DNA of 64,000 bases, from positions 1-64,000 of the IMG/VR virus record IMGVR_UViG_3300047510_001029. One strand, given 5' to 3'. The notes beneath the pieces are model-generated. The model searched no databases. It was not told where the DNA came from and saw nothing but the letters and a program-made list of their open reading frames with translations. Made by a program: the position numbers and the translations under genes. The stretch comes from a virus. Of the stretch, positions 10,216-64,000 are shown piece after piece. Position 1 is the first letter of the stretch. The number at the start of each line of letters is the position of its first letter.

Positions 10216-11442
10216 TTACCTCCTAACAACACTGACGGCAACGTCGCCCTGCTGGAAGATGATATCCACGACGTTCTGGACTGCCTTCGCGGTGCCCGCA
10301 GAAGCACGGTCAAACACGGGGCAGACCACCAGACCATAGGACTTGGTGTAGGACTCCAGAGCGCCCGCCTGAAGCGCCCCAGAGCGGATTCCAGCAGCGT
10401 CAGCAGGGTGAAGGCGCAGAGTACGCCCAACGGTCTGCCCGATGCCCACAACGTCCATAGAGCGCAGGAACACGACCGCTTCCAGAGCAGAGATGTTGAT
10501 GCCTTCGGCAAGAATGCTGTGATGAAGAACCACAAACTTCTTGTCGGCATCCTTGCCCCACTCATTCAGCGTATCAAAGAACACCTCACGATTGACTTTC
10601 TGACCGTCAATAAAAGCACCGTGCTTTGCGGTGATGTGAAGCACAGAGTATCCTGCCTCTTCCAGTTGCTGGGCAAAGTCAGTTTCAGACAGCAGACCGA
10701 TGATGTGCTTGGTTGCCTTCGCACACACCAGAATCTTATCCACAGGGTTCTCCTGAATGATCTGGAGCAGATACTCACAGTCACGCTGGGCGATGTCCTC
10801 ACCCTTCACAGAGAGGCGCATCGGGGCGGTGATGACCTTAGGGGGAATGATGTAACCACCCTCCACCAGTTCAGGAGCAGGAACCTTAGCGATGATTTGA
10901 CCATACACATCAGCGTCGTTCATACCTGCCTTACCCACAGTCACAGAATACTTGGGCGTGGCGGTGAAGAAATAACAACGCTTTGCCTCAGCAGCAAAGT
11001 GCTCAACGGCAGGGAAGAAGTGACGCTGAACGCTATTATGTGCCTCATCAAAGTAGATCGTATCCACCTCAATATCTGCATCAACCAGACGCTGCAGAGA
11101 GTTATAGGTGGTGAAAATCAGTTGATGCTTGTAGGCACGACGGCACCAGTTGTAAATCTCTGCGGGTTTGGTCGTGCTATAGTGGTGCGTCTCACCCGAA
11201 TGAACGTGAAGCACAGCAACGGTAGTGATGAACTCCAGATACTCACTGGAGAGTTGCTCGGCAAGCAGAATGCGAGGAGCAACCACTACAACGGTCTTAG
11301 GGGCGTCAGACTGAAACTCACGCATAGCATCGAAGATTCCCACGTTGGTCTTACCACCACCAGTCGGGAACACACAGATACCCTTAGAATGCTGAGCGAG
11401 GGCATCCAGAGCAGTCTGTTGGTGAGGACGGAGTTGAATCAC
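10216..11442 (-). CDS. SF2 DEAD/DEAH-box helicase
   Basis: 408 residues. Walker A PTGGGKT at 26-32, DEAH at 132-135, motif III TAT at 160-162, and a motif VI-like GQTVGRTLRLHP around 335-346, so both RecA-like lobes are present. Similar to the helicase part of type III restriction enzymes and UvsW-like phage helicases, but without an evident DNA-binding accessory domain. Its base composition is clearly richer in G+C than the flanking genes (long runs such as gcctcagcagcaaagtgctc), suggesting recent acquisition or different selection. Transcribed from the promoter at 11466-11494. Confidence 0.9.
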   Translation of the reverse strand: MIQLRPHQQTALDALAQHSKGICVFPTGGGKTNVGIFDAMREFQSDAPKTVVVVAPRILLAEQLSSEYLEFITTVAVLHVHSGETHHYSTTKPAEIYNWCRRAYKHQLIFTTYNSLQRLVDADIEVDTIYFDEAHNSVQRHFFPAVEHFAAEAKRCYFFTATPKYSVTVGKAGMNDADVYGQIIAKVPAPELVEGGYIIPPKVITAPMRLSVKGEDIAQRDCEYLLQIIQENPVDKILVCAKATKHIIGLLSETDFAQQLEEAGYSVLHITAKHGAFIDGQKVNREVFFDTLNEWGKDADKKFVVLHHSILAEGINISALEAVVFLRSMDVVGIGQTVGRTLRLHPADAAGIRSGALQAGALESYTKSYGLVVCPVFDRASAGTAKAVQNVVDIIFQQGDVAVSVVRR

Positions 11443-11524: not shown

Positions 11525-13261
11525 TTATGGCACTAAAACAGTACTTAAAGTTCCAGTATTAGAGACAGTTAATCGATATTTTGTTCCGTTTGGAGATGTT
11601 AATATTACACCCCTTGCCGTACTGACACCAACATAAAGATCTCCAGCTCTAATTGCCACATCTCCATCTACACGTACTCTTGTTCCAGCTGGATCACTTG
11701 GATTATCTGGATTAGTTGTTCCTACTCCAACTGAACCAAATAATGCTGTTACACTAATTCCTTCAATTCCTGCTCCATATCTAAGTGCCGTTGTTCCAAT
11801 TCCAATTCCAGAAGAATTAATAACTACAGCATCTTCTGGATCAATTAAATAATCACCACCAATGTGTAAAGGTTCTAATGGATTTATATTTCCAATACCA
11901 ATTTTTTGTTCAAAAAGTCCCAAATTAGTTACTTTAAGATCATAGAATGTTGAAATTCCAGAGGTAAAGTTTAATGGTAAATCAAACAAAGAAGATCCGT
12001 CAGCATCTACTACACCATTTTGACCATCTAAAATATAAAGATCTCTTACAGTTACAGTAGCTCCTACACCAGTTGCATAAACACTTCCACTAACATTTAA
12101 AGATGTAACTTGTGCAGATCCATTTACTTCAAGACTATGTGTTGGATTTGTAATACCTATACCAAGTCTTCCACCATAGGTCAAGGTCATCAATGCATTT
12201 GTTGAATCTGGAGCATATATCCAATTGAAATTGCCAGTTCCAACTCCAGAGACTCCATAATGTAAATAATAATTTAAATTTCCAGTATCATAGTTAATAA
12301 TGTCTAAAGACCTAGTTGTGCTTGAAGGATATAATCCATTCGTATTACCAAATCTAAGACCTCCAGTATTTCCCGTCGGACTTAAACTTCTACCTAAAGT
12401 AATATTAGTTGTATCTGCAGTAAGATGTAATGTAGTGCTCGATGATCCTACAACGTGAACAGCAGCATAAGGTACATCTGTATTCACTCCAACTGACCCA
12501 CTTGTTCTAAGTCTTGTGGAAATTGTAGAAACTCCAACAGTTGCTGCTTCTATATTAATTGTAGCATTAGAAGTTAAATCTCTTGCTGTAGATGCAATCC
12601 CAACTAGAGTTCCATTAAATGAACCTAGGGCAGTAATAATTCCAGCAACTTGGAAATTATCTGGAATTTTAGCATTAGGAAGAACTGGTAATCTTTCCGA
12701 ACTTATTGTTCCCGAAGAAATATTCGACGCATTTAGGTCAGTTAATCCTGTTCCAACTCCAACAAAAGAGTTTGCAGTAATAATTCCAGTAGTATATACG
12801 TTACCTGTCAATTCATCTACAGAAAATCCAGTCCCAGTTATAGGATCCTCTCCAATCTGCAAAGAATACTGAGGAAAAGTAGTTCCTATACCAACTTTAA
12901 ATGTTGTAAAAATTCCAGAGTTGGGAATGTCTATGTACCATCCATCAATTGCAACAGCATAAAATCCTGTAAGACCTCCAGCACTTCCATAAAATGTTGT
13001 CGCATTAACTGCCCCAGTAGAAGGGTTAAATGTAATTCCTGTTCCTACTTTTACATCATTATAAAATGTGGAGACTCCAGATACTGCTAGATTATTTGCC
13101 GTAACTAATCCAACAATTTTTGCATTTCCACGAAGATCAAAAAATTCAGTCGGAATAGAAGTACCAATTCCGACTAATCCATTTGGATCTACAATAAAAT
13201 TATCATTATCAACCTGAACGCCACTTCTAAAATTAAATGACTTTCTATAATTATTTGCCAT
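11525..13261 (-). CDS. Tail-fibre-like structural protein, 578 aa
   Basis: Low-complexity beta-rich protein starting MANNYRKSFNFRSGVQVDND. It carries repeated segments of the type VGIGTxxPxxxLxVxGxAxV (for example near residues 30, 125, 270, 370, 455 and 515), like the triple-beta shafts of phage fibres that use Gly-Ile-Gly-Thr turns. No catalytic or chaperone domain is visible. It is the last gene of the first fibre cluster and ends just before a strong terminator. Likely part of the baseplate-attached fibres that contact the host surface. Confidence 0.8.
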   Translation of the reverse strand: MANNYRKSFNFRSGVQVDNDNFIVDPNGLVGIGTSIPTEFFDLRGNAKIVGLVTANNLAVSGVSTFYNDVKVGTGITFNPSTGAVNATTFYGSAGGLTGFYAVAIDGWYIDIPNSGIFTTFKVGIGTTFPQYSLQIGEDPITGTGFSVDELTGNVYTTGIITANSFVGVGTGLTDLNASNISSGTISSERLPVLPNAKIPDNFQVAGIITALGSFNGTLVGIASTARDLTSNATINIEAATVGVSTISTRLRTSGSVGVNTDVPYAAVHVVGSSSTTLHLTADTTNITLGRSLSPTGNTGGLRFGNTNGLYPSSTTRSLDIINYDTGNLNYYLHYGVSGVGTGNFNWIYAPDSTNALMTLTYGGRLGIGITNPTHSLEVNGSAQVTSLNVSGSVYATGVGATVTVRDLYILDGQNGVVDADGSSLFDLPLNFTSGISTFYDLKVTNLGLFEQKIGIGNINPLEPLHIGGDYLIDPEDAVVINSSGIGIGTTALRYGAGIEGISVTALFGSVGVGTTNPDNPSDPAGTRVRVDGDVAIRAGDLYVGVSTARGVILTSPNGTKYRLTVSNTGTLSTVLVP

Positions 13262-13280
13262 TTCTTATAGTATTTTTAGT

Positions 13281-13288
13281 TATTTATT
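13281..13288 (-). promoter_or_regulatory. Late-type promoter motif AATAAATA
   Basis: AATAAATA on the minus strand, 20 bases before the fibre gene at 13261, matching the NATAAATA late consensus of T4-like phages (T4: TATAAATA). It overlaps the TAA stop of the upstream gene. Confidence 0.6.
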
Positions 13289-14321
13289 ATTGTGGGATTG
13301 TATTGATAATCGTACTTCCAATAATAGTTCCGGCACCAACATTTCTAATAGTTGTACCAGTTCCATTATTATAAATGATAATTGCTCTTCCACCACCACC
13401 AGCGGCACCTCCTGCTGCATTGCCTGCAGCACCTGCAGTTCCTGAACGTCCACCAGCTCCTCCTCCTCCACCTGCACCACCAGTTCCACCGTTTGTCCCA
13501 CCGGGGCCGCCAGTTCTAAGTGTTCCTGAAGATCCAGGATTTCCGTTATTAGCGGATCCAGATCCGCCAGGTCCTCCAGTTCCAAGAGGGAATCCAGCTC
13601 CTCCTCCACCACCATTACCACCAGATCTTCTTTCCCTTCTATTTCGAGTGAAAGATCCAGTTCTAGTGGTTCTATTAATCCAACTACCCCCACCACCTCC
13701 ACCACCACCTGCTTGAATATATCCTCTATTTACTACAGTAACTGGATAATCAATTCCCAATGCACTAGTTCCAGAACCTCCAGGTTGTCCTGCTTGAGAG
13801 TTAGATCCTCCTGCACCACCATTTCCACCAGCACCATAAATCTGTGCATTTTGACCAATTTGCATCTCTAATTGAGTATTAGTATCCCAAGATCCAGTTC
13901 TTACGGCAACTTGATTAATATTATTTTTAGAGGATCCAATAATTTTATTGACATTGATAATTATTCTAGTCCCCGATGTACTAGATGGATTACTTTTTAC
14001 TGCACCCGAAGGAATTATAGGAATAGAATTATTTGGATATCTAGATCTTGCAACAAGTCTTTGAGAATAATCTGGAACTGAAAACAAATCAACAATAACA
14101 TTCAATTTTTTATTATAAAAATCACTAAACTTAATAGCACCTGATTGGGGTATTAAAGCAGTAACAATTCCAGAAGCATTTACTGCGTTATCTAATGCAA
14201 GATTACTTAAAGACCCCACATTTTGACTTACTCTATAAGCACCTAAATTTATTCCAGGTGGTGTTCCAAATTCATTTGCAATTTGAGAAAAAGAAATCGG
14301 ACCAGATGCTTGTAATGCCAT
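13287..14321 (-). CDS. Glycine-rich tail adhesin-like protein, 344 aa
   Basis: Start taken at the ATG giving MALQASGPISFSQIANEFG; a TTG six bases upstream is possible. Residues 1-150 are a structured base. From about 165 the protein becomes extremely Gly-rich with runs such as GGGGGGGGS and blocks of GGAGG separated by short loops (NNGNPGSS, RTGGPGG). This resembles the glycine-rich polyglycine-II sandwich of gp38-type tail-fibre tip adhesins of T-even relatives, where the loops between Gly runs determine host specificity. It may therefore be a receptor-binding tip; this is inference from composition. Confidence 0.8.
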   Translation of the reverse strand: MALQASGPISFSQIANEFGTPPGINLGAYRVSQNVGSLSNLALDNAVNASGIVTALIPQSGAIKFSDFYNKKLNVIVDLFSVPDYSQRLVARSRYPNNSIPIIPSGAVKSNPSSTSGTRIIINVNKIIGSSKNNINQVAVRTGSWDTNTQLEMQIGQNAQIYGAGGNGGAGGSNSQAGQPGGSGTSALGIDYPVTVVNRGYIQAGGGGGGGGSWINRTTRTGSFTRNRRERRSGGNGGGGGAGFPLGTGGPGGSGSANNGNPGSSGTLRTGGPGGTNGGTGGAGGGGGAGGRSGTAGAAGNAAGGAAGGGGRAIIIYNNGTGTTIRNVGAGTIIGSTIINTIPQ

Positions 14322-14323
14322 CT

Positions 14324-17300
14324 TCAATTAACTCCTTTAAGTTCGTTAATTTCTTCTTTAAGTTCTTTAATCGCTTCAATTAAGAGGGGAACAAGTTTTT
14401 CATATTGGACTGCAAGATATCCATTATCTCTTTCAATTACCACTTCAGGAAGAACTGCTTGAACTTCTTGTGCAATGACACCAACTTCTGTTCCTTCTTT
14501 TCCAGATTTATCATTCCAATCAAAAGTATTACCACTTAAGGATAATACTTTATCTAGTGCATTGGGAATAGGAGCGATGTTATCCTTTAATCTTTGATCA
14601 GAAGTATAGAAAGCAGTGATATCTCCAGTTACATCAAGTTGTCCTGTTATATCAATACCAGCAGATTTTGTAGATAATTTAACTGAATTATCAAAATAAA
14701 GACTTACGGCACTATTTTCTGTGAATGTAGCAAGAGTTTCTGTTCCAGCAGCATTTCTAATTTCTAAGAGATTGGATTGTAGAATTAAACTAGCAGTTCC
14801 AGAATCTTTAATATAACTGTTTGATCCATCGTGATAAATGTCTAAATCATTTCCATTCCCAAGATACAAATGATCATTATCATTGAATCTTAAGTTTGAA
14901 TCTACTACAATAGAACTGTTAAATGTTACACTATTTTGGAAAGTTGCCGCACCATCTACATTTAGAGTTGAATCAAAATCAACTGCTCCACCAACATTTA
15001 ATCTTCCACCAATTCCAACTCCACCAGATACAATTAATGAACCAGTGGTTGTTGATGTTGATGGAGTATTATTTGTAACTTTTAATCCAGCACTAAAAAC
15101 TCCAGCAGCTTTTAATTTAATTTCTTTATTGAAAGTAACTGGTCCGTCAAATTGAGAAAGAACTGTTCCAGATACTCCACCCTCAACGAGAAGTCTATCT
15201 TTAATAGTAACTTCATCAAATACAGAACTTAGTTTTTTAGAATTTTCACCAGTTACAGTTGGAGTTGGAATATCATAAGAAACAACTTCTCCACTTGCTG
15301 CAATAGTTTTGGTGTTTCCATTAAAGAAATCGCCATTATTATTCATACCAGTATAGACAACAACTCCAGCAGATCTTTCCTGAGCTTGTGAGAAGAATTG
15401 TTCTGCTTCTGATAATGTCTTAACTTGAACTTGAGGTAATCCAGTTGAATAGTTACCAGGACCATATCCAAGATATTCAAAAGTATGACCTGATGCGCGA
15501 ATAATTGAAGGTCTGCGGAATTCAATTGCGACTGGATCAATTTTACGAACTAAGGAATCATTATCATGAGCCTCTGAAACAGTTCCAAAAATACCACGTT
15601 CTACAGTTGCTTGAGTGGAATTATTATCACTGGTAACTCTCATAATCTCATTATCAATCTGAATATAAGATCCAAGAGGTAATCTTTGCGCCGTTGCAAT
15701 ACCAACAATATTACTGATAAAGATTGTTGTTGCGGTAGATGTCACACTAGCATTAAGTTTAAATGCTCTTCCATCATAAAATGAAACGCCGCGACTACCA
15801 AGATTTTCTCCTGTTACATCAGAAACCCCACCATTTGAGGATAGACCGTGCTTAAGAACATAACCATTTACTGCAGAAATTGATTGGTTTGTAACTGCCG
15901 TAAATGAGGTTACACTTTGTCTGTCTTTTACAACATAGTCACCAAGATTGTTATTACTTGAATCTATGATTCTAAATTTATTTCCAACTAACAATCCATG
16001 TGCAGAAGAAGTTATAAATGTTGTGATTCCTGTTGCCGAAGTATAATTTGAGGATGTAATTTGTATAGAGGGACCTACAACAAAAGCATACTGTCCCGAA
16101 AGAATTGTGGGATCTCCACTTGTTCTAGCAATTGCAACAGAAGTTGAAGATGGAACAGATGATATACGATAATATCCATCAGAGGTAGTTCCAGTTCCAG
16201 TAACTTGTACGACATCACCAATATTTGTAGAAATTCCCACTGTGGTGATTGTATATCTTGCAGCACTATCCCCAACACCAATTCTACTTTGATCAAAATA
16301 TAATGCAGTAGCACTATATCCAGATCCAGGACTCATAATATTTACAGAAGTGATGGAATTTCCAGCACCAGACACAACAACATTTGCGGTTGCTCCATTC
16401 CATGTTCCAGTTTGAGAACCGTTTAAAAGTTTGACCCCATAATAAGTTCCTGGATTATATGTAGAACCTGGTGTTACGGATCCAGTTACAATACCAGATA
16501 ATCCGTGGAATCTTGAGAAATTTATTGTACTAGTTCCAGAATTAAAGGAAGAAATTGAGAGTCCAATTCCAATTTCTTTGAGTATTAAGTCAGATGTTTC
16601 TCTAGTAATACTTTTTTTCAGATCATTTGTTACAACATCACCAATTGGAGCACGCTTTGCATAAGTTTTTGCTGATCTTGGATTATCATTTACATTATCA
16701 CGATCTAATTGAGGATAAAGATCAGCAGGAAGTTGTCCAAATTTTAGACTTGTAAATTCTTCAGTGACCTGATTATTTGCATTTAAAACATACAGATGAT
16801 AAATTCCATCTTGCTTATCTTGAATATAAGGAGAAATTACTTCATTACGATAAACAAATAGATTTGCTTTCCAATCATTTCGTTCAAATCTTGGAAGATT
16901 TTCATCTCTTACGCTTGTATTACTCGTAAAAGTTCCTGTCGTTTGAGTAGCGCCTGTAACTAAGTTATTGGTCGAGTAACTGAAGGTATTTACATCTGTA
17001 ACTCCAGTGACTTCAAATGAACCATTATATCCAGAATTGAAAGTTCCAGTTGAATTTGTAGAGCTCTTAACATTTCTAATAATAACAGTTTCACCCACTT
17101 GGATATTATGAGGGAGCTCAGAAATTACTGTAACTGTACCAGAACTTTCAGTGCAAGTTGAAATGAATCTTGGATTTTTATTGTAATCATAATCAGTTCT
17201 TCCAATACTTGTTCTCGTAAAATCTACACTACTTCTAGATCCAGTAGTGCTGCTTTCTTGAAGAATAAATCCAGATTCTGGATCTTTTGAGTTTGATAGT

Positions 17301-45509: not shown

Positions 45510-48335
45510 TTAAAATCCTAGATGTTTTCTTCTTACAAAACTTAAATCATATGTTGTTTCTGAAATTGAATGTTCCTTTCCTTTAAATGGTAAATCTTCA
45601 GGGCTACACATTCTCCAACCAGGTCCCCATTTTTCTGTCAGATATTCTATATTTAAATTATTTGAATGATCTAATTTTTCTTTAAGTTCTGGTTCACTTT
45701 TTTGTGTTTGACATCCCTCTTTATAATATTCAGTCTTATCCCCGTGCCCGTGATAATAATTTGAGTTCAGGGACATTACTTTTTTAATGGAATGATGTTG
45801 AAATCTCATTATGTAATCAGAGTCTTCACAATAAGCAGGATATAAATTCTCATCAAACAATCCAAACTTTTGAACGACATGATCCCTCATTAAGAATACA
45901 TCCCAACTACCCACACCAAAGTCTCCAGCGTGTCCGTGAATTATTCCAATCTCAGAATCAGATTCGGCAACGGAAACCATTTCCTCTAAGAATCCAGGGC
46001 AAAAAGCAACATCATCACTCACAATAATCCAATAAGGTGCCATCATATAAGATTTAATAATTAAATTCCAAGCACCACCACATCCAATGTTTGCTGGCAT
46101 ATGACAAACTTTAATATTTTTAATATATTTGTGGGTGATCTTGGTTAAGTTATTTAATTCTTCATCAAGCTGACCTCTTCCATTATTATTAATAATAACA
46201 AAATTATCAACTGGATAATCAACGCTTTCTAAAAGACGTTTTATCCAATAACAATTATTTACAACCGCCGTTCCAATCACCGGAATACTTTTTTTTTTAT
46301 CTTCGATATTATTTTCAATATAAATCATAAACTGTGCATGACCATATTCATTATACCATTGTTCAAATGGTACAAGAAAGTCTTCATTGAAGATTATATC
46401 AGTTATTTCTCTACCACTCAGTTCAAACACTTTATAATTATTATGATCCTTTAAATAAAGATTTATAAAATTTCTAAATTTTTCCATAGAATTACCATTA
46501 CTGGTAAAATGCCACTCACCTGCGATGTACTTAACATTATTCAAGAGAAAATTTTTATTTTCTTCAGTAAATACATCATATTCTCCACCTTCACAGTCAA
46601 TTTTTAGAAAATCTATGTGATTAATATTATTTTCCCTAAGAATGTCTTTAAAGGTTTTTGATTTATAAAATCCTTGATGAAAATGAATGTAATCATTTTC
46701 AGTAGGTTCTTTGAAATCACAAGTTTCACTAGAAACTGAAGAATCAATAATAGTTACGGGAAATCCACTTAAATTATTTTTGATAGTGTCAATTAAATTG
46801 ACAGAAGGTTCTATACAGTAAATATGTTTTGGATTTTTATTTAATACTGAATAAGAAAATGCTCCAACATTTGCACCAATGTCCATTACAATGTCATTTT
46901 CTTTTACTGAAAAAAATCTATCATAGATATGATCTTGAAATATTTCTTTCCCAATGATATTTTTTTCCTCATCAGATAATACTCCCCAATCAAAATCTTC
47001 AGTTGAGATTTTTTTATTATTGATGTTCATAGGAAGTTTGTTTTTAAATAACTGATTTAAATCTATTTCAACATTCATTTTTTTAAGATTATCAATAGCT
47101 TTTTGTTGGAAAGTATCTGCCATCTGATAATTCTTAAGAAGATCTAAAAGTAAATCTCTTGATTCTTCACACAACCCACACCACCAACTGCTGATTGCTT
47201 TCTGAAAAAGAAGCGCATATTCCCCAGGATAATTCACGACTGTTCTCAGTGGTGATGGATTTAAATCAGCAACTTTCAATCCTATAGAAGAAATTGTGAA
47301 AGATTCATTCCAACTTCCATCTTTATTTTCCTTTTCATAAAACTTACTCATCAGATAATAAGCTTCTGGTCTTTTGGGACAAATCGCAAGAGCGTGTAGA
47401 AGAAAACCTTTCACAGTAAAGTTGCGAGTACCCTGCGAATCAAAGCACATAGCACCACGAATCAGACACTCATACTTAAGAAGGTCATCATCTGTTCTTT
47501 CTGCCGCACGGAGATAATAAGAAACTGCTGTAGCAGTCTGTCCGATGTCATGATAATAAACTGCTAAATCAAAGTTGTGTTCTGCGTTCTCTGGTTGATT
47601 AATGTAATTATGAAGAAGTTCAGTCAAATCAGAAGAATTATATTTTTGTTGAGTTTTTTGTATTCTACAACAAAAATAACAAGAACTTTCCTGACAATCT
47701 GTTCTAATTACATTATTAAAAATATAACCAAAATAATTTTCATCATTGCGCCCATTATCTAAAATTTCAAATCCATTTTGAATAAGTTTATTCTTCCACC
47801 AGATTGGAGGAAAAACTGATTGATGAAGAATGTATAATTGGTCATCAATTACAACTTCATGAGGAATTTTAGATATACCAAAGGAACAGATTCCATCTTC
47901 TTTTAGATGCTTTTTAATCTGTTTCAGCATATTATCAATCTTATCCACAGAGATATGTTCGAAAACTTCCTCCGAATGAATGTAATCAAATTTTAAAGGC
48001 TCATCGTTCTCATACAACTGATATTCTTCTGTAATGTCACAAAGAAACAAATTGGTATTGTGGTATTTGTCCCAGTTGTATTTTCCGCTTCCAGTTAAAC
48101 AATTAGAACTTCCCTCCAATCCGATTGCATCATGCCCTCTTTCAATAAAATCAACTACAAACTTTCCACCAGAACAACCCAAATCAAGAACAGAAATTTT
48201 TTTTCCACCAAAATATTGTATAACTTCAGATATTAATCCAATCGAACTAAAATTATCATTCACACACCCAACGGGACAAAGATGATCTGGAGAATCTAAT
48301 GCTACTTCTTTTTTTGCATCTAATTTAAAAGTCAT
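45510..48335 (-). CDS. Four-domain methyltransferase-TPR-FkbM-glycosyltransferase protein, 941 aa
   Basis: Order of domains: (1) class I SAM methyltransferase, VLDLGCSGGKFVVDFIERGH at about 49-68, FDYIHSEEVFEHISVDKIDN; (2) TPR-like helices about 230-420 (AVYYHDIGQTATAVSYYLRA, PEAYYLMSKFYEKENKD); (3) FkbM methyltransferase from about 480, IVMDIGANVGAFSYSVLNKN and HIDFLKIDCEGGEYDVF; (4) GT2-type glycosyltransferase from about 700, VIINNNGRGQLDEEL, then YWIIVSDDVAFCPGFLEEM and CEDSDYIMRFQHH. Builds and methylates a glycan on an unknown carrier. Ends adjacent to the GT25 fusion gene. Confidence 0.88.
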   Translation of the reverse strand: MTFKLDAKKEVALDSPDHLCPVGCVNDNFSSIGLISEVIQYFGGKKISVLDLGCSGGKFVVDFIERGHDAIGLEGSSNCLTGSGKYNWDKYHNTNLFLCDITEEYQLYENDEPLKFDYIHSEEVFEHISVDKIDNMLKQIKKHLKEDGICSFGISKIPHEVVIDDQLYILHQSVFPPIWWKNKLIQNGFEILDNGRNDENYFGYIFNNVIRTDCQESSCYFCCRIQKTQQKYNSSDLTELLHNYINQPENAEHNFDLAVYYHDIGQTATAVSYYLRAAERTDDDLLKYECLIRGAMCFDSQGTRNFTVKGFLLHALAICPKRPEAYYLMSKFYEKENKDGSWNESFTISSIGLKVADLNPSPLRTVVNYPGEYALLFQKAISSWWCGLCEESRDLLLDLLKNYQMADTFQQKAIDNLKKMNVEIDLNQLFKNKLPMNINNKKISTEDFDWGVLSDEEKNIIGKEIFQDHIYDRFFSVKENDIVMDIGANVGAFSYSVLNKNPKHIYCIEPSVNLIDTIKNNLSGFPVTIIDSSVSSETCDFKEPTENDYIHFHQGFYKSKTFKDILRENNINHIDFLKIDCEGGEYDVFTEENKNFLLNNVKYIAGEWHFTSNGNSMEKFRNFINLYLKDHNNYKVFELSGREITDIIFNEDFLVPFEQWYNEYGHAQFMIYIENNIEDKKKSIPVIGTAVVNNCYWIKRLLESVDYPVDNFVIINNNGRGQLDEELNNLTKITHKYIKNIKVCHMPANIGCGGAWNLIIKSYMMAPYWIIVSDDVAFCPGFLEEMVSVAESDSEIGIIHGHAGDFGVGSWDVFLMRDHVVQKFGLFDENLYPAYCEDSDYIMRFQHHSIKKVMSLNSNYYHGHGDKTEYYKEGCQTQKSEPELKEKLDHSNNLNIEYLTEKWGPGWRMCSPEDLPFKGKEHSISETTYDLSFVRRKHLGF

Positions 48336-55762: not shown

Positions 55763-56341
55763 ATGAGTGAGTTTGTAAGAAAAGGTTGGTATTATCTTCC
55801 TAAAATTATTACACCAGAAGAAGCAATTAGTATCAAGTATCAAAATCTCTGTGGTGCGATGAGTGACTTAGGTTCTCTTGAAGGACACTGGGATCCAGAG
55901 AGAGGTAGAGTATTGACTTGTTATGCTCCACCTTCTTGTGCTTTTGTAATGAAAAGAGTTCAACCAATTCTAGAAGAACTACTTGGAGAAGAACTCATCC
56001 CATCTTATTGGTTCTCTACAACTTATCATAAAGGTGGATGGATGAACTGTCATACTGACCGCCCATCTTGTGAAATTTCAGTCACGATGAATATTTGTGG
56101 TGATGCTGCGTGGCCTATCAAACTCAAAGACCTGACTGGTAAAAGAAGAGAAGTCGTCACACCAGTTGGAGATGGTCTTGCTTATCTTGGAACGATTGTA
56201 CCTCACTGGAGAAGTCCTTTGAGAACTCACGAGAATGACCGCTTTATGCAGTTGTTCCTACACTTTGTTAGAAAAAATGGTCAGTATGCTGACTATGCTT
56301 ATGACCGAAATGATAAGTGCTATACCTTACTTACCAACTAA
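55763..56341 (+). CDS. 2OG-Fe(II) oxygenase-like protein, 192 aa
   Basis: Only plus-strand gene in the right half. Motif GGWMNCHTDRPSCEISVTMN gives HxD, and TIVPHWRSPLRTHENDRFMQ supplies the second His and an Arg. Also YYLPKIITPEEAISIKYQN at the start. Likely hydroxylase, substrate unknown. It is placed between the collagen-like fibres and another oxygenase gene with which it overlaps convergently by 4 bases. Confidence 0.8.
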   Translation: MSEFVRKGWYYLPKIITPEEAISIKYQNLCGAMSDLGSLEGHWDPERGRVLTCYAPPSCAFVMKRVQPILEELLGEELIPSYWFSTTYHKGGWMNCHTDRPSCEISVTMNICGDAAWPIKLKDLTGKRREVVTPVGDGLAYLGTIVPHWRSPLRTHENDRFMQLFLHFVRKNGQYADYAYDRNDKCYTLLTN

Positions 56342-57000
56342 GATACCTTTACTCCATATTTATCTTGTAATTCTTTGTCTTGCTCTGCTTTCGTCTTAAA
56401 TCCTTGAACGGTCATCCAATTGACCATCGTATAACGAGTTCCTGAGATGACTGGTTCTACTTTATGAGCAAAGAACTGAGAAGATGGAAAGGCAACTAGA
56501 AGTCCTGGTTCTGGACGAATGGTTACTCGGAGATCTGGGAATACAAAGTTTCCACCCTCAAAGTCATCGTTGAGAAAAAGAACTGTAGATACATCACGGT
56601 CTATAGACTTCTTCCAGATGATATTTCCATCAGGACACTTCCATTTTGCTACGGCATCATAGTGTGCCTGGTAGTGTCCTCCTGGATTATAGACCAATAG
56701 TTGCGGCATTTCACTATCTTTGATTTTGAATCCATAAAAAGGATTGATTACGTGATGAACTATATTATCATAGAGTTCTTTGATTTGAGGAATGATAGTT
56801 TCAATATCTGCTGCCTTTACATTTCTTGATTTTAAATCAATTTTTCCCGGATGATCTTCTCCAGTTTGATTTGCTTTGTCTGGGTCAAAAACTCCCATCT
56901 GTTCCTGATGAGAATTCTTTGCGTGATGAATAAGAAACTCAATTGCCTCTGGTGTAAGAACCTTTGGTTGAATTAGAACATTAGAAAGTAAATCATTCAT
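56338..57000 (-). CDS. Prolyl-4-hydroxylase-like 2OG-Fe(II) oxygenase, 220 aa
   Basis: P4H-like pattern: VYNPGGHYQAHYDAVAKWKC (HxD), DRDVSTVLFLNDDFEGGNFV, EPGLLVAFPSSQFFAHKVEP (second His) and GTRYTMVNWMTVQG (Arg). This is the best canonical hydroxylase of the window. CTAAATA lies about 25 bases upstream. Target unknown; the neighbouring Gly-x-x fibre genes are plausible partners but lack Pro in the triplets. Confidence 0.88.
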   Translation of the reverse strand: MNDLLSNVLIQPKVLTPEAIEFLIHHAKNSHQEQMGVFDPDKANQTGEDHPGKIDLKSRNVKAADIETIIPQIKELYDNIVHHVINPFYGFKIKDSEMPQLLVYNPGGHYQAHYDAVAKWKCPDGNIIWKKSIDRDVSTVLFLNDDFEGGNFVFPDLRVTIRPEPGLLVAFPSSQFFAHKVEPVISGTRYTMVNWMTVQGFKTKAEQDKELQDKYGVKVS

Positions 57001-57024
57001 ATCAAAATGATGTAAGTATCTTAT

Positions 57025-58866
57025 TTAGTTTGAGTTTGAGGTTGCTGCTAAAAAACTTCTTGATTGAGGTAATTGAGGTATTGATGTTGTTACGGTTTCT
57101 GTGGAGAAATCTAGACGGTCAATGGTACAAACAGAAGGAGGAGCAAAACCACCACCAAAGTAACCATAAGAACTACTTGAGGTTGCTGCTAAAGCATCTC
57201 TTGCCTGAGATAACTTAGGTGTTGGTACTGTTACGGTTTCGGTAGAAAAATCTAAACGGTCTATGGTGGAAATAGCAATACCAGTATTACCACCACCAAA
57301 GTAACCATAAGAACTACTTGAGGTTGCTGAAGTAGTTCTTGCTTGAGATAACTTAGGTGTTGGGACTGTGACGGTTTCTGTGGAAAAATCTAGACGGTCA
57401 ATGGTACAAACATAAGCGGGAAGAAAAGCACCACCACCAAAATAACCATAAGAACTATTTGAGACTGCTGCTAAAGCACCTCTTGCTTGAGATAATTTAG
57501 GTCCTGGTGTTGTTACGGTTTCTGTGGAGAAATCTAGACGGTCAATGGTGCAAACATAGGTAAAAGAACCATAACCACCAACAAAGTAACCATAAGAACT
57601 ACTTGAGGTTGCTGCTAAAGAACTTCTTGCTTGAGATAACTTAGGTGTTGGAACTGTGACGGTTTCATTGGAAAAATCTAGACGGTCGATAGTAGAAAAA
57701 TCAGCAGTATCGAGAAAAGAATAACCACCACCAAAGTAACCATAAGAACTACTTGAGGTTGCTGCTAAAGAACTTCTTGCTCTAGATAACTTAGGTGTTA
57801 GTCTTGTTACTGTTTCTGTAGAGAAATCAAGAAGGTCAATGGTGGAAACAGTAACACCACCACCAAAGTAACCATAAGTCTTATTACCCACTCTGGGAAA
57901 CTTTGCGGTATTTGAGACTGCTGATAAATATCTTCTTGCTGTAGGTAAATTGTTTCCTGAATTACTGACGGTTTCATTAGAGAAATCAAGACGACTGATG
58001 GTGTTTAAGTAAGCACCATTAAAACCACCACCAAAATAACCATAAGAACTACTTGAAGTTGCTGGCAATTCTGCTCTTGCTGAAGGTAAATTTTTTCCTG
58101 GATTACTTACAGTTTCATTAGAGAAATCTAGACGACTGATAGTACATAGAAAAATACCTGGAGGACCTGGAATATAACCCCCACCAAAGTATCCATAAGA
58201 ACTACTTGAGGTTGCTGATGAAAATCTTCTTGCTGTAGGTAAATTGTTTCCTGGATCACTGACGGTTTCATTAGAGAAATCAAGACGACTGATGGTGCTT
58301 ATAACAGGAGGAGCAAACCCACCACCAAAGTAACCATAAGAACTACTTGAAGTTGCTGTCAATTCTGCTCTTGCTGTAGGTAAATTCTTTCCTGGATCAC
58401 TGACGGTTTCATTAGAGAAATCAAGACGACTGATAGTACATAGAAGAGTACCTGGAGCACCTGGAGTATAACCCCCACCAAAGTATCCATAAGAACTACT
58501 TGAGGTTGCTGCGAAATTAATTCTTGGTGAAGGTAAATTATTTCCTGGATTACTGACGGTTTCATTAGAGAAATCAAGACGACTGATGGTGTTTATAGCA
58601 CCAGGAGTAGTATCACCACCACCAAAGTAACCATAAGAACTACTTGAGGTTGCTGCTAATTGATGTCTTACTGAAGGTAAATTGTTTCCTGGATCACTGA
58701 CGGTTTCATTAGAGAAATCAAGACGACTGATGGTGCTTATAAAAGGAGGAGCAAACCCACCACCATAATACCCATAAGTCGCACTCTCAGGCCAATATGC
58801 AAAGTTTCCGTATGCTACATTTTTGACTTGTTCTGTTCTTGCGTCCTGAAGTGAAAAGGTAGGCAT
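57025..58866 (-). CDS. Kelch-like propeller fibre with 12 repeats, 613 aa
   Basis: After a short N-terminal tag (QVKNVAYGNFAYWPESATYG) come twelve repeats of about 45-52 residues built on the core YGYFGGG...ISRLDFSNETV...LPxAR...AATSSSS. The first six have SRLDFSNETVS and NNLP; the last six have DRLDFSTETVT and PKLS. They are divided by NTAKFPRVGNKT. Kelch repeats (Gly-Gly doublet, then a Trp/Phe) form beta-propellers, so this looks like two six-bladed propellers in one chain. Likely a host-recognising tip. Homologous to the gene at 59702-61570. Confidence 0.85.
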   Translation of the reverse strand: MPTFSLQDARTEQVKNVAYGNFAYWPESATYGYYGGGFAPPFISTISRLDFSNETVSDPGNNLPSVRHQLAATSSSSYGYFGGGDTTPGAINTISRLDFSNETVSNPGNNLPSPRINFAATSSSSYGYFGGGYTPGAPGTLLCTISRLDFSNETVSDPGKNLPTARAELTATSSSSYGYFGGGFAPPVISTISRLDFSNETVSDPGNNLPTARRFSSATSSSSYGYFGGGYIPGPPGIFLCTISRLDFSNETVSNPGKNLPSARAELPATSSSSYGYFGGGFNGAYLNTISRLDFSNETVSNSGNNLPTARRYLSAVSNTAKFPRVGNKTYGYFGGGVTVSTIDLLDFSTETVTRLTPKLSRARSSLAATSSSSYGYFGGGYSFLDTADFSTIDRLDFSNETVTVPTPKLSQARSSLAATSSSSYGYFVGGYGSFTYVCTIDRLDFSTETVTTPGPKLSQARGALAAVSNSSYGYFGGGAFLPAYVCTIDRLDFSTETVTVPTPKLSQARTTSATSSSSYGYFGGGNTGIAISTIDRLDFSTETVTVPTPKLSQARDALAATSSSSYGYFGGGFAPPSVCTIDRLDFSTETVTTSIPQLPQSRSFLAATSNSN

Positions 58867-59697
58867 TTATAAACCGAACACAGAATACTGAGAAGTTCTT
58901 GTTTGCCGCCAGAACTCCATATGATTGTATTTATTCATAACATAGTCACTAAGATACTTTGAGTTATCACGATGTATCTTCTCTACCTTATTTCTTACCG
59001 TATGCATATTGTCTAACTTATAAACCTCATCGTTCTCATCACACTTCGGAATGACATTCCCAAAACTATGAGAATAAGAAGGTAATTCCAGAAACTCATA
59101 GATACGATTGAGTTCTTGTTGTGGATTTCTTGTAAGGTCATCATATTCCACTAACAGAATATTGTTTCTATATCCTTTAGAGAATGCTTGTTGAAGTGCG
59201 TGATAAGATTGTCCGATAATACCTTGAGGAGACATTAGGTAATCACAACGATTATCATTTGTGATTTCAAGATTGTTTCTAAGAAGTGCTTCATCAATAA
59301 AAGAAACTCTTGAAGTTTTATGAATGAGTAAAAGAAACGATGAAAGAATATCCTGAATAGACCTTACGGGACAAATAATCTTTGGATCTTTTGTAATGTA
59401 ATCTGTAATGTGTTGGATTTGATTGACCCAACCTCTTGACTTATCAATAATAATATTCTGTGGAGTATTGAAATAATAGTTATGAGGTATGGACGATAAA
59501 ACCTTATGTGCTCCTTGTGGATTTGGAGTTGCCTTATATTGTTCTGAGTTATGTAAAAGGTATTCTTGTGTATAGTGTATCGTATCCAGAAGTGGAGAGT
59601 TTGTGGATGCGTGTATCTCTGAATTTTGATTGAGTAGTGCCGTCAAGAGTGTGGAACCTGAACGTGGAAGTCCAGACATAAAGTAAAAGGTTTTCAT
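58867..59697 (-). CDS. Sulfotransferase, 276 aa
   Basis: P-loop-like PAPS-binding motif SGLPRSGSTLLTALLNQNSE at 8-27 and a 3'-phosphate-binding segment ICPVRSIQDILSSFLLLIHK, followed by LVEYDDLTRNPQQELNRIYE, all typical of sulfotransferase families. It transfers sulfate to a sugar or a protein Tyr. Between two propeller fibre genes; it starts one base away from the first. It might sulfate a fibre-bound or host glycan. Confidence 0.88.
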   Translation of the reverse strand: MKTFYFMSGLPRSGSTLLTALLNQNSEIHASTNSPLLDTIHYTQEYLLHNSEQYKATPNPQGAHKVLSSIPHNYYFNTPQNIIIDKSRGWVNQIQHITDYITKDPKIICPVRSIQDILSSFLLLIHKTSRVSFIDEALLRNNLEITNDNRCDYLMSPQGIIGQSYHALQQAFSKGYRNNILLVEYDDLTRNPQQELNRIYEFLELPSYSHSFGNVIPKCDENDEVYKLDNMHTVRNKVEKIHRDNSKYLSDYVMNKYNHMEFWRQTRTSQYSVFGL

Positions 59698-59701
59698 AAT
59701 A

Positions 59702-61570
59702 TTAGTTTGAGTTTGAGAGTGCTGATAACTGTAATTTTGCTGTAGATAATTTAGGACTTGGAGTTGATACTGTTTCTGTAGAAAAATCTAAACGATCTCT
59801 GGTGGAAACAGAAGCAGTAGGAGTATTACCACCACCAAAGTATCCGAAAGAACTACTTGAGGTTGCCGCTAAAAATGACTTTGATTGGGATAACTTAGGA
59901 CTTGGAGTTGATACAGTTTCTGTGGAGAAATCTAAACGATCTATAGTAGAACGATTAATTCTAGTAGGAACAGTAGGAAGAGCATAACCACCACCAAAGT
60001 ACCCGAAAGAACTACTAGAAGTTGCTGTTAGAGCACGTCTGTCTATAGATAACTTAGAACTTGGAGTTGATATAATTTCATTAGAAAAATCTAAACGTTC
60101 TATGGTGGTAACAGTAGCATTACCAGAATTACTACCCCCACCAAAGTACCCATAAAAACTACTTGAGACTGATGCTGACCTACCACCCAATTGAGATAGT
60201 CTTTGTGTTACGACTGTTGTGATTTCTGTAGTAAAATCTAAACGATCTATAAGAGAACTAAAATTACCAGCACCAAAGTAACCATAAGAACTATTTGAAA
60301 CTCCAGCACTTGCTTCTCTTGCGATTGATAACTTTGGACTTGGAGTTGTGACTGTTTCATTAGAGAAATCAAGACGATCAATGGTGCTTACAGGAGCAGG
60401 AGTAGGAAGTTCTCCACCACCAAAGTAACCATAAAAACTACTTGAAGTTGTTCCTGGATCAACTTTTGCTTGAGATAACTTAGGTGTTGGAGTTGTGACG
60501 GTTTCTGTAGAGAAATCTAAACGGTCTATGGTGGAAAGACCAAAACCACCACCAAAGTAACCATAAGTCTTATTGCCTCTGAGAACTGATTGACCTCCTG
60601 AGACTGCTGATAAAGATTCTCTTGTTGAAGGTAAATTGTTTCCTGGAAGACTATTGGTTTCATTAGAGAAATCAAGACGACTGATGGTGTTTATAATAGC
60701 AGGAGTAAGACCACCACCAAAGTAACCGAAAGAACTACTTGAGGTTGCTGCTAATGATGCTCTTGTTGCAGGTAAGTTCTTACCAGGATTACTGACAGTT
60801 TCATTAGAATAATCAAGACGACTGATGGTGTTTATAATAGGACCAGCAGCACCAATGGCACCACCACCAAAGTAACCATAAGAATTACTTGAAGTCGCCG
60901 CTAAAATATATCTTATTGTTGGTAAGTTCTTACCAGGATTACTGACGGTTTCATTGGAAAAATCAAGACGAGTGATGGTGCATATAAAAGTAGGACCAGG
61001 AGGAACAGCACCACCAGCAAAGTATCCATAAGAATTATCTGAGGTTGCTGATAAATCTCTTCTTACTGTAGGTAAATTTTTTCCCGGATCACTAACTGTT
61101 TCATTAGAGAAATCAAGACGAGTGATGGTGCATATAAAAGTAGCGGGAAAAGAATAACCACCACCAAAGTAACCATAAGAACCACTTGAGATTGCTGCTG
61201 AATTTCTTCTTGCTGGAGATAAGTTATTACCGGGATTACTGACGGTTTCATTGGAGAAATCAAGACGACTGATAGTGCTCATTTGTGAAGTAGGAGTTGG
61301 AGCACCACCACCAAAGTAACCATAAGAACTACTTGAGGTTGCTGCCAAATCAAGTCTTACTGAAGGTAAATTGTTTCCTGGGAGACTGTTGGTTTCATTA
61401 GAAAAATCAAGACGACTGATGAGGGCTGTGATAGTAGGAGTACCACCTCCTCCAAAGTATCCATAAGTCGCACTCTCGCTCCAGTTCGCAAAGTTCTTCT
61501 GTTCTACATTGAGAATCTGTTTATCATAAACATTATTCAGTCCAAAAACATCCCCTACGAACTTTGGCAT
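59702..61570 (-). CDS. Kelch-like propeller fibre with 12 repeats, 622 aa (paralogue)
   Basis: N-terminal MPKFVGDVFGLNNVYDKQIL and ANWSESATYGYFGGGGTPTI, then twelve YGYFGGG-type repeats: six with SRLDFSNETVS or SLPGNNLPS, a spacer with GGQSVLRGNKT, then six with DRLDFSTETVT. Same two-block plan as the gene at 57025-58866. The N-termini differ, but both place the first repeat after WPESATYG or WSESATYG. Loops between the strands vary most, as expected for receptor-binding surfaces. Confidence 0.85.
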   Translation of the reverse strand: MPKFVGDVFGLNNVYDKQILNVEQKNFANWSESATYGYFGGGGTPTITALISRLDFSNETNSLPGNNLPSVRLDLAATSSSSYGYFGGGAPTPTSQMSTISRLDFSNETVSNPGNNLSPARRNSAAISSGSYGYFGGGYSFPATFICTITRLDFSNETVSDPGKNLPTVRRDLSATSDNSYGYFAGGAVPPGPTFICTITRLDFSNETVSNPGKNLPTIRYILAATSSNSYGYFGGGAIGAAGPIINTISRLDYSNETVSNPGKNLPATRASLAATSSSSFGYFGGGLTPAIINTISRLDFSNETNSLPGNNLPSTRESLSAVSGGQSVLRGNKTYGYFGGGFGLSTIDRLDFSTETVTTPTPKLSQAKVDPGTTSSSFYGYFGGGELPTPAPVSTIDRLDFSNETVTTPSPKLSIAREASAGVSNSSYGYFGAGNFSSLIDRLDFTTEITTVVTQRLSQLGGRSASVSSSFYGYFGGGSNSGNATVTTIERLDFSNEIISTPSSKLSIDRRALTATSSSSFGYFGGGYALPTVPTRINRSTIDRLDFSTETVSTPSPKLSQSKSFLAATSSSSFGYFGGGNTPTASVSTRDRLDFSTETVSTPSPKLSTAKLQLSALSNSN

Positions 61571-61571: not shown

Positions 61572-62432
61572 TTACTCTAGTTTGAGGTCTTGATTGAATA
61601 ACGAACTTGTGATTTGTTTTGCTTCTTCTTTCTCTTCAATACCCGAAAGAAGTGCTTTATCCATACCAGTAATCTCTTCAATACCAGCAGCAACATTTTG
61701 CTGAAGTGCGTTCAGGAAATCAAGAGGATTGTTAGGATCTCCAAAAGTTCCTTTGGTTCTATTCACATCATCAGGAAGAACCGTAGGGGCACTTGCGCGT
61801 CTCATAGAACGAATATTACCAGCATTTACGCCAGTCTTTGCAGCAAGTAGGTCATCAAGAGATTGATTTGCAAGTCTGCGTTCCCAGTAGTTTGGTTGGT
61901 CTGCATTATATTGGTCACGAGAAACTAACTGACCACCATTCAATTCAACAAGACGATTGATAAGTTTATCAAAGCATTCAAGTTCTTCTACTGAAGACTT
62001 GAAACCACGATTGAGTCCTTCAAGCATTCTGTGAAAATGAAATTCATCAATATCATACCAAGTGAGTTCTTCACCACCTTGACGATTTTTCCACCAGATT
62101 GGTTGAGTCTTATCCTTTCCTTCCCACTTATAATAAAACTCTCTTGCTGCTCTTTTTGCTTCAATGATTTGTTGGAGTAGTCCTTCTGCTACGCTTCTAC
62201 GATTGATAATTGCTGCCTTGAATGCGGAAGGAAGTGTAAAGTTATCGTGAATGATAAACTTTTCAATCTGAAAATCAGAGCGTCCTTGTGCGAGTTCTGT
62301 TTCACTTTCAGTCCAACGATTTGCTTCGTTGAGAACTTTCAGCATAAACTCATTACTGTCATCTAGAACTTCCTTAGAAGTCGCAAGAGCAATTGCTTCA
62401 TAGTTATTAGACATAGTATTCTTCAGTTTCAT
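61572..62432 (-). CDS. Hypothetical protein, 286 aa
   Basis: ATGA overlap with the upstream gene supports ATG 62432; an ATG at 62414 (MSNNYEAIALATSKEVLDDS) is possible. Helical throughout (FKAAIINRRSVAEGLLQQII, LTWYDIDEFHFHRMLEGLNR) with an acidic end. No family recognised. Sits two bases before a propeller-fibre gene, so it may be a fibre connector or chaperone. GATAAATA lies 8 bases upstream of the start. Confidence 0.75.
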   Translation of the reverse strand: MKLKNTMSNNYEAIALATSKEVLDDSNEFMLKVLNEANRWTESETELAQGRSDFQIEKFIIHDNFTLPSAFKAAIINRRSVAEGLLQQIIEAKRAAREFYYKWEGKDKTQPIWWKNRQGGEELTWYDIDEFHFHRMLEGLNRGFKSSVEELECFDKLINRLVELNGGQLVSRDQYNADQPNYWERRLANQSLDDLLAAKTGVNAGNIRSMRRASAPTVLPDDVNRTKGTFGDPNNPLDFLNALQQNVAAGIEEITGMDKALLSGIEEKEEAKQITSSLFNQDLKLE

Positions 62433-64000
62433 TTTTTATTATTTATCGCAACAAAAATGCCGCTATTCTCATTGAACTTTCTTGTAATACTAACTTCAAA
62501 GTTTTTTTCTTCCAGATATTTTTTCAAGTCTTCAAGATTATGTGAGGTAATATTGTTGTGATATTCACCAACGATTTTATTGACTTTGCTAAGTAACTTT
62601 GAATTGAAAAGAATTTCAAACTCTGAACCTTCAGTATCAATCTTGATTAGAGATACTTTAGAAAAATGTGCGAGTATATCATCCAACCCTATGGTTGAAA
62701 CTGTGACTGGAATACCTCTTGGTTGATAAAATGAATGAAGACCTGTGTTACATCCTTTCACGACCGTAAGATTTTTTTGCCCCTTCTTATCAGAGACTGC
62801 TAGATTATAAGGTTGAAAGTGTTTATAGTCCTTGAGATTGTGAATGAGTGACTCAAAGTTATTTGGTTCTGGTTCAAAGGAATGAATGTTCTTACATCCC
62901 ATATCCATACACAACTTCGTGAAGTATCCTTTATGTGCTCCAATATCAATTACAATATCATCAGGAGCAAAGGTTTCAATACCATATTCATTCTTATGAT
63001 AAACTTCGTTGAAGATATATTCATCATCAATATAAACTGCTCGTTTTGTAACAACCTCAATCAATTCACTCCAATCTCTAGCGATTGTTTTCCAGTTGTA
63101 ATGATGAATTGCTAGAGATGCTAGGTCATTTGTCGCAGCATAAAAAGTCTCTGGTTCTTTATCAAAAAATGAAAGTGCCTGAATAATTTCTTTCGCAAAG
63201 TTTTGGTGAAATGTATCATCAGGCAACCAACCTCTTGGAGTATTCTGCCCCGACATCGGAATATACTTCCCTCTTCCAAATGATGTCTCTGGAAGTGCTC
63301 CCATATCGGTTGTGATAGGGAAGCAACCACAACTCATTGCCTCCGCTAATGAGACACAGAAGGTTTCTTCCCATACATTTGGGTGAATATAAAATGCAGC
63401 ATCCTGAATATGAGGTAGTAAATCTTCACGGTCAATACAAGGTGAATACTCCACACCTGGAAGTGCCTGGAGTTCCTTGTAGATGGAAATGAATGGTGAA
63501 GGCTCTAGTCCATTCTCAGTTGTGATGGTCTCATTTTCTCCTTCTCCTGGTTGAATTGCACCATAAAGAGACATTGAAGAAAACACCTTGAGTTTTGCAT
63601 CTGGATGATGTTTGATGACTTCTTTCCAGATGGGTACTAATGGTGTGATACCCTTATGAGGAGCAGAAAAGAAGATACAGGTCTTTGATTTTGGTTTTCC
63701 TGATGGACGGAACATCTCATCCACACCATTTGGGATGACTGTGATTTTTTCTGCTGGTGCTCGGTTATACTTGATGTATTGCTCTCTTTCCCAGTTAGAG
63801 ACACAAACAATACGATCAATCTGCGATACTAACTCTGGAAGTCTTAAGAGTTGTGGTTGATCGCAGTTATCGTGGGCCCACAGAATTTTATATTGCTTCT
63901 TTGATTGTGCTAATTCTTCTATACTTCTTGAGATTTCAACATTATTTGGAATTGTATAATATTGATTGAGATAATAAAAAGAACTTTCAGTTGCTCCAGA
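62429..64000 (-). CDS. GT4 glycosyltransferase fused to FkbM methyltransferase (N-terminus cut)
   Basis: The frame stays open to the window edge, so at least 523 residues are visible and the start is missing. The GT4 C-lobe is clear: KITVIPNGVDEMFRPSG, IFFSAPHKGITPLVPIWKEV, YIHPNVWEETFCVSLAEAMS, CGCFPITTDMGALPE. A FkbM methyltransferase follows (from about residue 340 of the visible part): DDIVIDIGAHKGYFTKLCMD, NIHSFEPEPNNFESLIHN and VSLIKIDTEGSEFEILFNSK. A frame that looks as if it starts at 63724 is only an internal GTG. It resembles part of the 941-residue fusion protein in its FkbM-plus-glycosyltransferase design. Confidence 0.88.
   Translation of the reverse strand, partial: SGATESSFYYLNQYYTIPNNVEISRSIEELAQSKKQYKILWAHDNCDQPQLLRLPELVSQIDRIVCVSNWEREQYIKYNRAPAEKITVIPNGVDEMFRPSGKPKSKTCIFFSAPHKGITPLVPIWKEVIKHHPDAKLKVFSSMSLYGAIQPGEGENETITTENGLEPSPFISIYKELQALPGVEYSPCIDREDLLPHIQDAAFYIHPNVWEETFCVSLAEAMSCGCFPITTDMGALPETSFGRGKYIPMSGQNTPRGWLPDDTFHQNFAKEIIQALSFFDKEPETFYAATNDLASLAIHHYNWKTIARDWSELIEVVTKRAVYIDDEYIFNEVYHKNEYGIETFAPDDIVIDIGAHKGYFTKLCMDMGCKNIHSFEPEPNNFESLIHNLKDYKHFQPYNLAVSDKKGQKNLTVVKGCNTGLHSFYQPRGIPVTVSTIGLDDILAHFSKVSLIKIDTEGSEFEILFNSKLLSKVNKIVGEYHNNITSHNLEDLKKYLEEKNFEVSITRKFNENSGIFVAINNKK
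62440..62447 (-). promoter_or_regulatory. Late-type promoter motif GATAAATA
   Basis: GATAAATA on the minus strand 8 bases before the start of the 286-residue gene (or about 26 before its alternative start). The latter spacing would be more usual. Confidence 0.4.

What the first reader, a model, noticed from the sequence alone, without database searches (positions are those of the whole stretch)
57025..61570. Twin fibres each with two six-repeat kelch-like propellers
Both proteins (613 and 622 residues) contain twelve YGYFGGG-type repeats that fall into two blocks of six with different consensus (ISRLDFSNETV...NNLP versus IDRLDFSTETV...PKLS), separated by a distinct spacer ending in GNKT. The plan fits two six-bladed beta-propellers per chain, which would be an unusual receptor-binding tip for a T4-like phage. 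The loops vary, the core does not, as in fast-evolving binding surfaces.
Basis: partly seen in the sequence, partly recalled or inferred. Interest (0 to 1): 0.75.

Follow-up and report, generated by a model that had tools for sequence, protein, structure and literature searches.

The report
Swappable propeller proteins of cyanophages
The two repeat proteins are strings of two closed six-bladed "propeller" domains, and they are two of three sister proteins that each such virus of cyanobacteria carries: each sister keeps its own short attachment tag while the propellers are exchanged as whole units between viruses, which suggests an interchangeable set of grippers for recognising host cells.

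Summary
Both proteins carry 12 kelch-type repeats in two blocks of six with a GNKT-ending linker. AlphaFold models with Foldseek support closed six-bladed propellers: protein A folds confidently, and block 2 of protein B alone matches Keap1 Kelch. Across 180 distinct complete relatives, repeat number is quantised in sixes (12, 18, 24), which argues against a solenoid or a 12-bladed ring.

The "twins" are two of a triplet; the third gene lies just beyond the window. Near relatives carry one copy each of three classes, set by a ~20-residue N-terminal tag (helical in the model of A). Tags track class (54/54 nearest neighbours), whereas propellers keep no memory of class and resemble those of the other paralogues in the same phage. 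Natural near-identical phages differ by replacement of one propeller only, with breakpoints in the linker and at the stop codon. Amino-acid changes concentrate about twofold in the loop after the GGG.

Best reading: a three-socket set of tag-anchored, exchangeable receptor-binding propeller chains (confidence about 0.6). Presence in the virion is inferred from genomic setting and one precedent, not shown. They are not fibres in the usual sense. New variant of a known kind (modular phage adhesins, kelch propellers).

The parts
57025..58866 (-). Kelch protein A, class I tag, 613 aa, 6+6 repeats
   Evidence: AlphaFold pLDDT 90.2
58810..58851 (-). A: N-terminal class I tag (residues 6-19), predicted helix
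   Evidence: DSSP on the model, low pLDDT 55-67; tag class conserved across phages
57898..58803 (-). A: propeller 1 (approx. residues 22-323), six blades, closed by the strand after the last repeat
57877..57912 (-). A: linker NTAKFPRVGNKT; equivalent linkers are the 5' breakpoint of natural propeller swaps in relatives
57028..57876 (-). A: propeller 2 (residues 331-613), six blades
57022..57028 (-). CTAAATA late-promoter-like motif overlapping the stop codon of A; the same place is the 3' breakpoint of swaps in relatives
58867..59697 (-). Sulfotransferase gene, partner of the class I kelch gene (immediately upstream of it in most relatives)
   Evidence: Pfam Sulfotransfer_3 7.8e-16; synteny
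59702..61570 (-). Kelch protein B, class II tag, 622 aa, 6+6 repeats
61508..61555 (-). B: N-terminal class II tag (GDVFGLNNVYDKQILN)
60599..61492 (-). B: propeller 1 (approx. residues 27-324)
   Evidence: homology to A (67% identity)
60566..60598 (-). B: linker GGQSVLRGNKT
59705..60565 (-). B: propeller 2 (residues 336-622)
   Evidence: folded alone with the linker: pLDDT 91.7, pTM 0.90; TM 0.87/0.90, 1.8 A to Keap1 Kelch
61572..62432 (-). g286, conserved 286-aa gene immediately upstream of the class II kelch gene in 46 of 49 gene orders compared
   Evidence: no known function
62429..63724 (-). Glycosyltransferase/FkbM methyltransferase, overlaps the start of g286; partner of the class II cassette
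56338..57000 (-). 2OG-Fe(II) oxygenase closing the kelch cluster in most relatives

Best explanation
Each protein is a chain of two closed six-bladed kelch propellers behind a short N-terminal docking tag. The phage makes three such chains (classes I, II, III), each with its own tag, so each probably plugs into its own site on the tail or baseplate. The propellers, chiefly through the variable loop after each GGG, bind host-surface molecules. Specificity changes by exchanging whole propellers between phages and between the three chains by recombination at the conserved linker and stop-codon borders, with slower loop mutation on top. Shown here: the repeat plan, propeller fold prediction, one-of-each triplet, tag and body decoupling, cassette swaps, loop variability. 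Inferred: virion location, docking by the tag, receptor binding. A guess: that the linked sulfotransferase, glycosyltransferase and 2OG-oxygenase modify these proteins or the host glycan.
For: Propellers: A model pLDDT 90.2 with half of it matching six-bladed kelch structures at TMt 0.87-0.94 and 1.7-2.4 A; B block 2 alone pTM 0.90 and TM 0.87/0.90 to Keap1. Quantisation: 12 (73), 18 (11), 24 (4) of 97 proteins, and 65 of 79 further proteins found through partner genes are multiples of six; most exceptions show gaps the size of a missed divergent repeat. Triplet: 29 contig groups with exactly one I, one II and one III, plus S-SKS1 with three tags. Decoupling: tags 0.637 same class vs 0.422 other; propellers 0.546 vs 0.545, but 0.613 within a phage, 0 of 2000 shuffles. 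Swaps: of 18 same-class pairs sharing at least one block at 93% or more, 10 have the other block below 75%; L060 vs L065 are 99-100% identical in DNA up to the linker of the class I gene, 50-69% across propeller 2, then 95-99% after its stop, and each allele appears in two or three assemblies. Loops: nonsynonymous change 11.7% in the loop vs 5.4% elsewhere, synonymous 5.5% vs 4.6%. Setting: tail and fibre genes around, late-promoter-like CTAAATA at the stops of 38/57 class I and 42/70 class II kelch genes. Precedent: a kelch-domain protein, CBB_552, was found in virions of phage CBB by mass spectrometry (PMC5259590).
Against: No proteomics or EM for any member. The tag helix is predicted with low confidence (pLDDT 55-67) and its partner is unknown. 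A pTM of 0.55 leaves the relative placement of the two propellers open. Modifying enzymes next door do not prove a surface role. Most swap examples come from one group of related contigs, not from the window's own phage, which has no close relatives with other alleles here.
Confidence: 0.6

Rival explanations
1. Virion surface decorations or whiskers on head or tail shaft that help weak, general attachment, rather than specificity-determining adhesins at the baseplate.
For: Kelch proteins and tail whiskers occur together in phage CBB, and one kelch protein is in its virion. Three sockets and variable chain length (2-4 propellers) would suit decorations. Sulfotransferase and glycosyltransferases nearby fit surface modification.
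Against: Whole-propeller replacement among near-identical phages and the loop bias look like specificity change. Genes sit with tail-fibre genes.
Confidence: 0.2
2. Intracellular adaptor proteins that bind host or phage proteins during infection, as poxvirus kelch proteins do.
For: Fold and family hits to Keap1 and KLHL kelch domains; N-terminal tag could recruit an effector.
Against: No BTB or other effector domain; three co-maintained tags with interchangeable bodies; late-gene setting among tail fibres.
Confidence: 0.1
3. Enzymes of the galactose-oxidase or mutarotase type with a kelch fold.
For: Pfam names some matched kelch models 'galactose oxidase, central domain'.
Against: Invariant columns are mostly repeat-core positions, repeated in every blade; no single blade carries a distinct conserved site, and whole propellers can be replaced by ones 45-70% identical.
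Confidence: 0.05
4. The apparent swaps are assembly chimeras of repeat-rich genes.
For: Repeats are prone to mis-assembly; a few proteins have blocks of 4 or 5 repeats.
Against: Breakpoints fall at the linker and stop, not at random repeats. L060 and L061 share one allele, and L065, L066 and L067 the other, in separate records. The donor propeller exists intact elsewhere (L037, 99%).
Confidence: 0.05

Closest known systems
Kelch beta-propeller (Pfam PF24681/PF13415; Keap1, KLHL domains; designed SAKe6 proteins)
   Same: Six four-stranded blades, diglycine motif, conserved Arg aligned with that of SAKe6.
   Different: Two to four propellers per chain, no BTB domain, phage-specific tag, sequence identity only about 13-22%.
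phrog_19111 (unknown function)
   Same: Both proteins and the third paralogue are members, E 1e-206 to 1e-168.
   Different: The family carries no function; the triplet, tag classes and swapping are not in its annotation.
S-SKS1 kelch-repeat genes (SWZG_00001, 00287, 00289, 00291), hypothetical proteins
   Same: Same three tags, same sulfotransferase and g286 partners, same linker plan.
   Different: Several of the S-SKS1 open frames are interrupted in the deposited sequence.
CBB_550/552/554 kelch-domain proteins of jumbo phage CBB
   Same: Kelch propellers in a myovirus; one is in the virion.
   Different: No close sequence relation detected; no triplet or tag system described there.
Modular phage receptor-binding proteins (constant N-terminal anchor, exchangeable C-terminal tip), e.g. 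T-even and Klebsiella phage adhesins (from general knowledge)
   Same: Works alike: constant docking end, exchangeable binding end.
   Different: Exchange unit here is a closed propeller in a beads-on-a-string chain, sorted onto three tag classes.

Membership tests
Kelch propeller superfamily | Kelch repeat profile above curated cut-off | tested here: met
   PF24681 94.6 and 67.4 bits vs cut-off 50
Kelch propeller superfamily | Closed ring of six (to seven) four-stranded blades | tested here: met
   Predicted only; quantisation in sixes
phrog_19111 | Profile match over most of its length | tested here: met
   E 1.1e-206, profile 7-416 of 443
Phage receptor-binding protein | Component of the virion | not testable with these tools
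   No proteomics for these phages; only the CBB precedent
Phage receptor-binding protein | Binds the host surface and determines adsorption | not testable with these tools
   Needs binding or deletion experiments
Phage receptor-binding protein | Constant anchor with variable, exchangeable binding region | tested here: met
Trimeric phage tail fibre | Elongated shaft or trimerisation domain | tested here: not met
   No such domain by Pfam, PHROGs or model; oligomeric state itself was not tested
Diversity-generating retroelement target | Variable repeat with template repeat and reverse transcriptase nearby | not tested
   No reverse transcriptase was among the family hits of the neighbouring genes searched, but it was not looked for specifically

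The most novel reading that the evidence does not exclude
A three-socket, quick-change host-recognition device: three paralogous chains, fixed to three different virion sites by class-specific tags, share one pool of propeller domains that are moved as intact units between chains and between phages, with the inter-propeller linker and the stop-codon/late-promoter motif acting as recombination borders.
Probability: 0.45. Interest if true: 0.8.

Novelty: new variant of a known kind. Interest (0 to 1): 0.64.

Why it matters
How large cyanophages recognise picocyanobacteria is largely unknown, and this family is common in viral metagenome contigs (177 confirmed stretches in one scan) yet close homologues occur in only one isolated phage among 50,697 records. 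If right, it gives a named candidate, S-SKS1 and its three genes, in which host recognition can be tested directly, and it shows evolution treating a beta-propeller as a plug-in cartridge. It also gives a clean natural record of domain exchange with exact borders.

Tried and rejected
Cellular relatives: a scan of 84,980 species genomes found none confirmed. Tag on non-kelch proteins: not found in fetched loci, and a tag-III pattern scan of viral contigs returned only 16 stretches, on contigs already known to carry kelch genes. Solved relatives by sequence: only Keap1/KLHL-type and designed kelch, plus one entry, 9tsn 'Kelch protein', whose source the tool does not name. General sigma-70 and late-promoter counts over the window: no enrichment; only the positional signal at kelch stops stands out, and the ATAAATA upstream of class I genes is not used as evidence because it lies within the sulfotransferase coding sequence. 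Papers: searches found no description of this triplet. A few relatives with 4 or 5 repeats in a block may be real or assembly collapse; not resolved.

Full report
WHAT IS THERE. The two open reading frames are as reported. Each has twelve repeats of 44 to 56 residues, in two blocks of six with different consensus, and a longer spacer after the sixth repeat. Pfam recognises kelch repeats above its own cut-off, and both proteins are members of phrog_19111, a family without known function. The window is part of an 82,149-base virus record. Its tail genes match tail, fibre and baseplate families, and its baseplate hub lysozyme is closest to Synechococcus phages S-SKS1 and S-SRM01, so the source is a cyanomyovirus-like phage.

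PROPELLERS OR NOT. Sequence logic already points to closed rings: each block begins with the YGYFGGG strand and ends with the strand that normally precedes it, the usual way in which a propeller is closed by its ends (inference). An AlphaFold model of A from 66 natural sequences has mean pLDDT 90.2; pTM is 0.55, which fits two rigid domains with loose relative placement. Foldseek matches one half of it to six-bladed kelch structures with target TM 0.87 to 0.94 and 1.7 to 2.4 A for designed SAKe6 proteins and Keap1. Block 2 of B, folded alone, gives pTM 0.90 and TM 0.87/0.90 at 1.8 A to the Keap1 Kelch domain. An independent test is repeat number. In 97 distinct complete relatives it is 12 in 73, 18 in 11 and 24 in 4, with linkers every six repeats. 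In 79 further proteins found through neighbouring genes rather than through the repeats, 65 are multiples of six, and most of the rest have the length of two or three propellers with gaps the size of missed divergent repeats. A solenoid or a 12-bladed ring would not predict this. The proteins are related by descent, so the counts are not independent trials.

THREE, NOT TWO. A third 6+6 paralogue lies just outside the window at 64031-65893 of the record. Across relatives the first 20 to 30 residues fall into three classes: I (FSLNEVRTEQ; protein A), II (GDVFGLnxVYDKQ; protein B) and III (GVFGLKKVYKKQ; the third). Twenty-nine contig groups carry exactly one of each; most groups with two of a class are merged near-identical strains, and a few distant ones are not. 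S-SKS1 also has three tags. Propeller number per chain is usually the same in the paralogues of one phage: (2,2,2) in 29, (3,3,3) in 3. Each class has its own upstream partner: sulfotransferase for I, g286 with a glycosyltransferase/FkbM gene for II, a glycosyltransferase for III; the III cassette usually comes first, the I and II cassettes come in either order, and a 2OG-Fe(II) oxygenase usually closes the cluster. In Marine virus AG-345-L05, a distant relative with kelch-like chains, a g286 homologue is fused to a glycosyltransferase.

TAG AND BODY EVOLVE APART. In 18 complete triplets every tag is closest to a tag of the same class (54/54). After dropping near duplicates, tag identity is 0.637 within class and 0.422 otherwise, while propeller-1 identity is 0.546 and 0.545: the propellers hold no trace of class. 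They are more alike within a phage (0.613 and 0.619 for propellers 1 and 2; none of 2000 shuffles reached this for any pair of classes). So the three chains keep different ends and share a pool of bodies.

PROPELLERS ARE SWAPPED WHOLE. Of 18 same-class pairs sharing at least one block at 93% or more, 8 share both and 10 share only one, the other being below 75% (the 8 were counted without regard to class). Between L060 and L065 the DNA is 99-100% identical up to the linker of the class I gene, 50-69% across propeller 2, and then 95-99% from its stop codon on, before falling to 87-89% further away. L060's propeller 2 is 99% identical to that of L037, whose propeller 1 is only 57% identical. Each of the two alleles appears in two or three separate records. 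Breakpoints lie in the linker (GGQSIxRGSKTYGYFGGG) and at the shared end (SNSN, stop, ATAAA) in the pairs inspected. One block appears in class I of one phage and class II of another at 94%.

LOOPS. Across 1513 repeats the seven or so positions after the GGG and two positions after the conserved Arg are the most variable. Among close relatives nonsynonymous change is 11.7% in that loop and 5.4% elsewhere, with similar synonymous change. The effect is about twofold, less absolute than "the core does not vary".

HOW IT PROBABLY WORKS. The likeliest reading is a set of three tag-anchored adhesin chains on the virion whose propellers bind host-surface ligands. Shown: plan, predicted fold, triplet, decoupling, swaps, loop bias. 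Inferred: virion location, from the tail-fibre setting, the late-promoter-like CTAAATA at kelch stop codons (38/57 class I and 42/70 class II genes, none of the two motif forms on the other strand there; that this is the cyanophage late motif is my recollection, the T4 form TATAAAT is in PMC3037559), and the CBB precedent (PMC5259590). Not known: tag partners, ligands, role of the sulfotransferase, glycosyltransferases and 2OG-oxygenase.

NOVELTY. Kelch propellers and modular adhesins are both known, and kelch proteins have been reported in giant phages. I found no paper describing multi-propeller chains in three tag classes or propeller-by-propeller exchange, within a library that lacks most subscription journals. 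I therefore rate it a new variant of a known kind.

Noticed in passing
L001 (S-SKS1, NC_020851.1 about 201813-206324): In the only isolate with close homologues, the class I and class II kelch open frames are each interrupted inside the repeats in the deposited sequence; this could be sequencing error or real loss in culture.
   Followed up: partly
window 61572-62432; L094:5897-7792: g286 is far more conserved (65-89%) than the kelch proteins it precedes and has no known function; in AG-345-L05 its homologue is fused to a glycosyltransferase.
   Followed up: partly
L078:3081-8042 and 12397-17091 (record 66580-71541 and 75896-80590): Two very long proteins (1653 and 1564 aa) made largely of collagen-like GTQGIQG triplets, next to the kelch cluster.
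   Followed up: no
L094:2361-5267 and 8271-11021: Distant kelch-like chains in a single-cell marine phage; one matches phrog_19111 and starts with GVWSL, the other has a stretch matching a virion structural protein family (phrog_701) between its repeat regions.
   Followed up: partly
window 45510-48335: A 941-aa protein with matches to methyltransferase and galactosyltransferase families, part of a large sugar-modification set in this phage.
   Followed up: no
L048:8627-11194: A kelch chain with an extra C-terminal domain of about 235 residues without a PHROGs match.
   Followed up: partly
L042, L033, L034: Rare chains with a block of only 4 or 5 repeats; real deletions or assembly collapse.
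   Followed up: no
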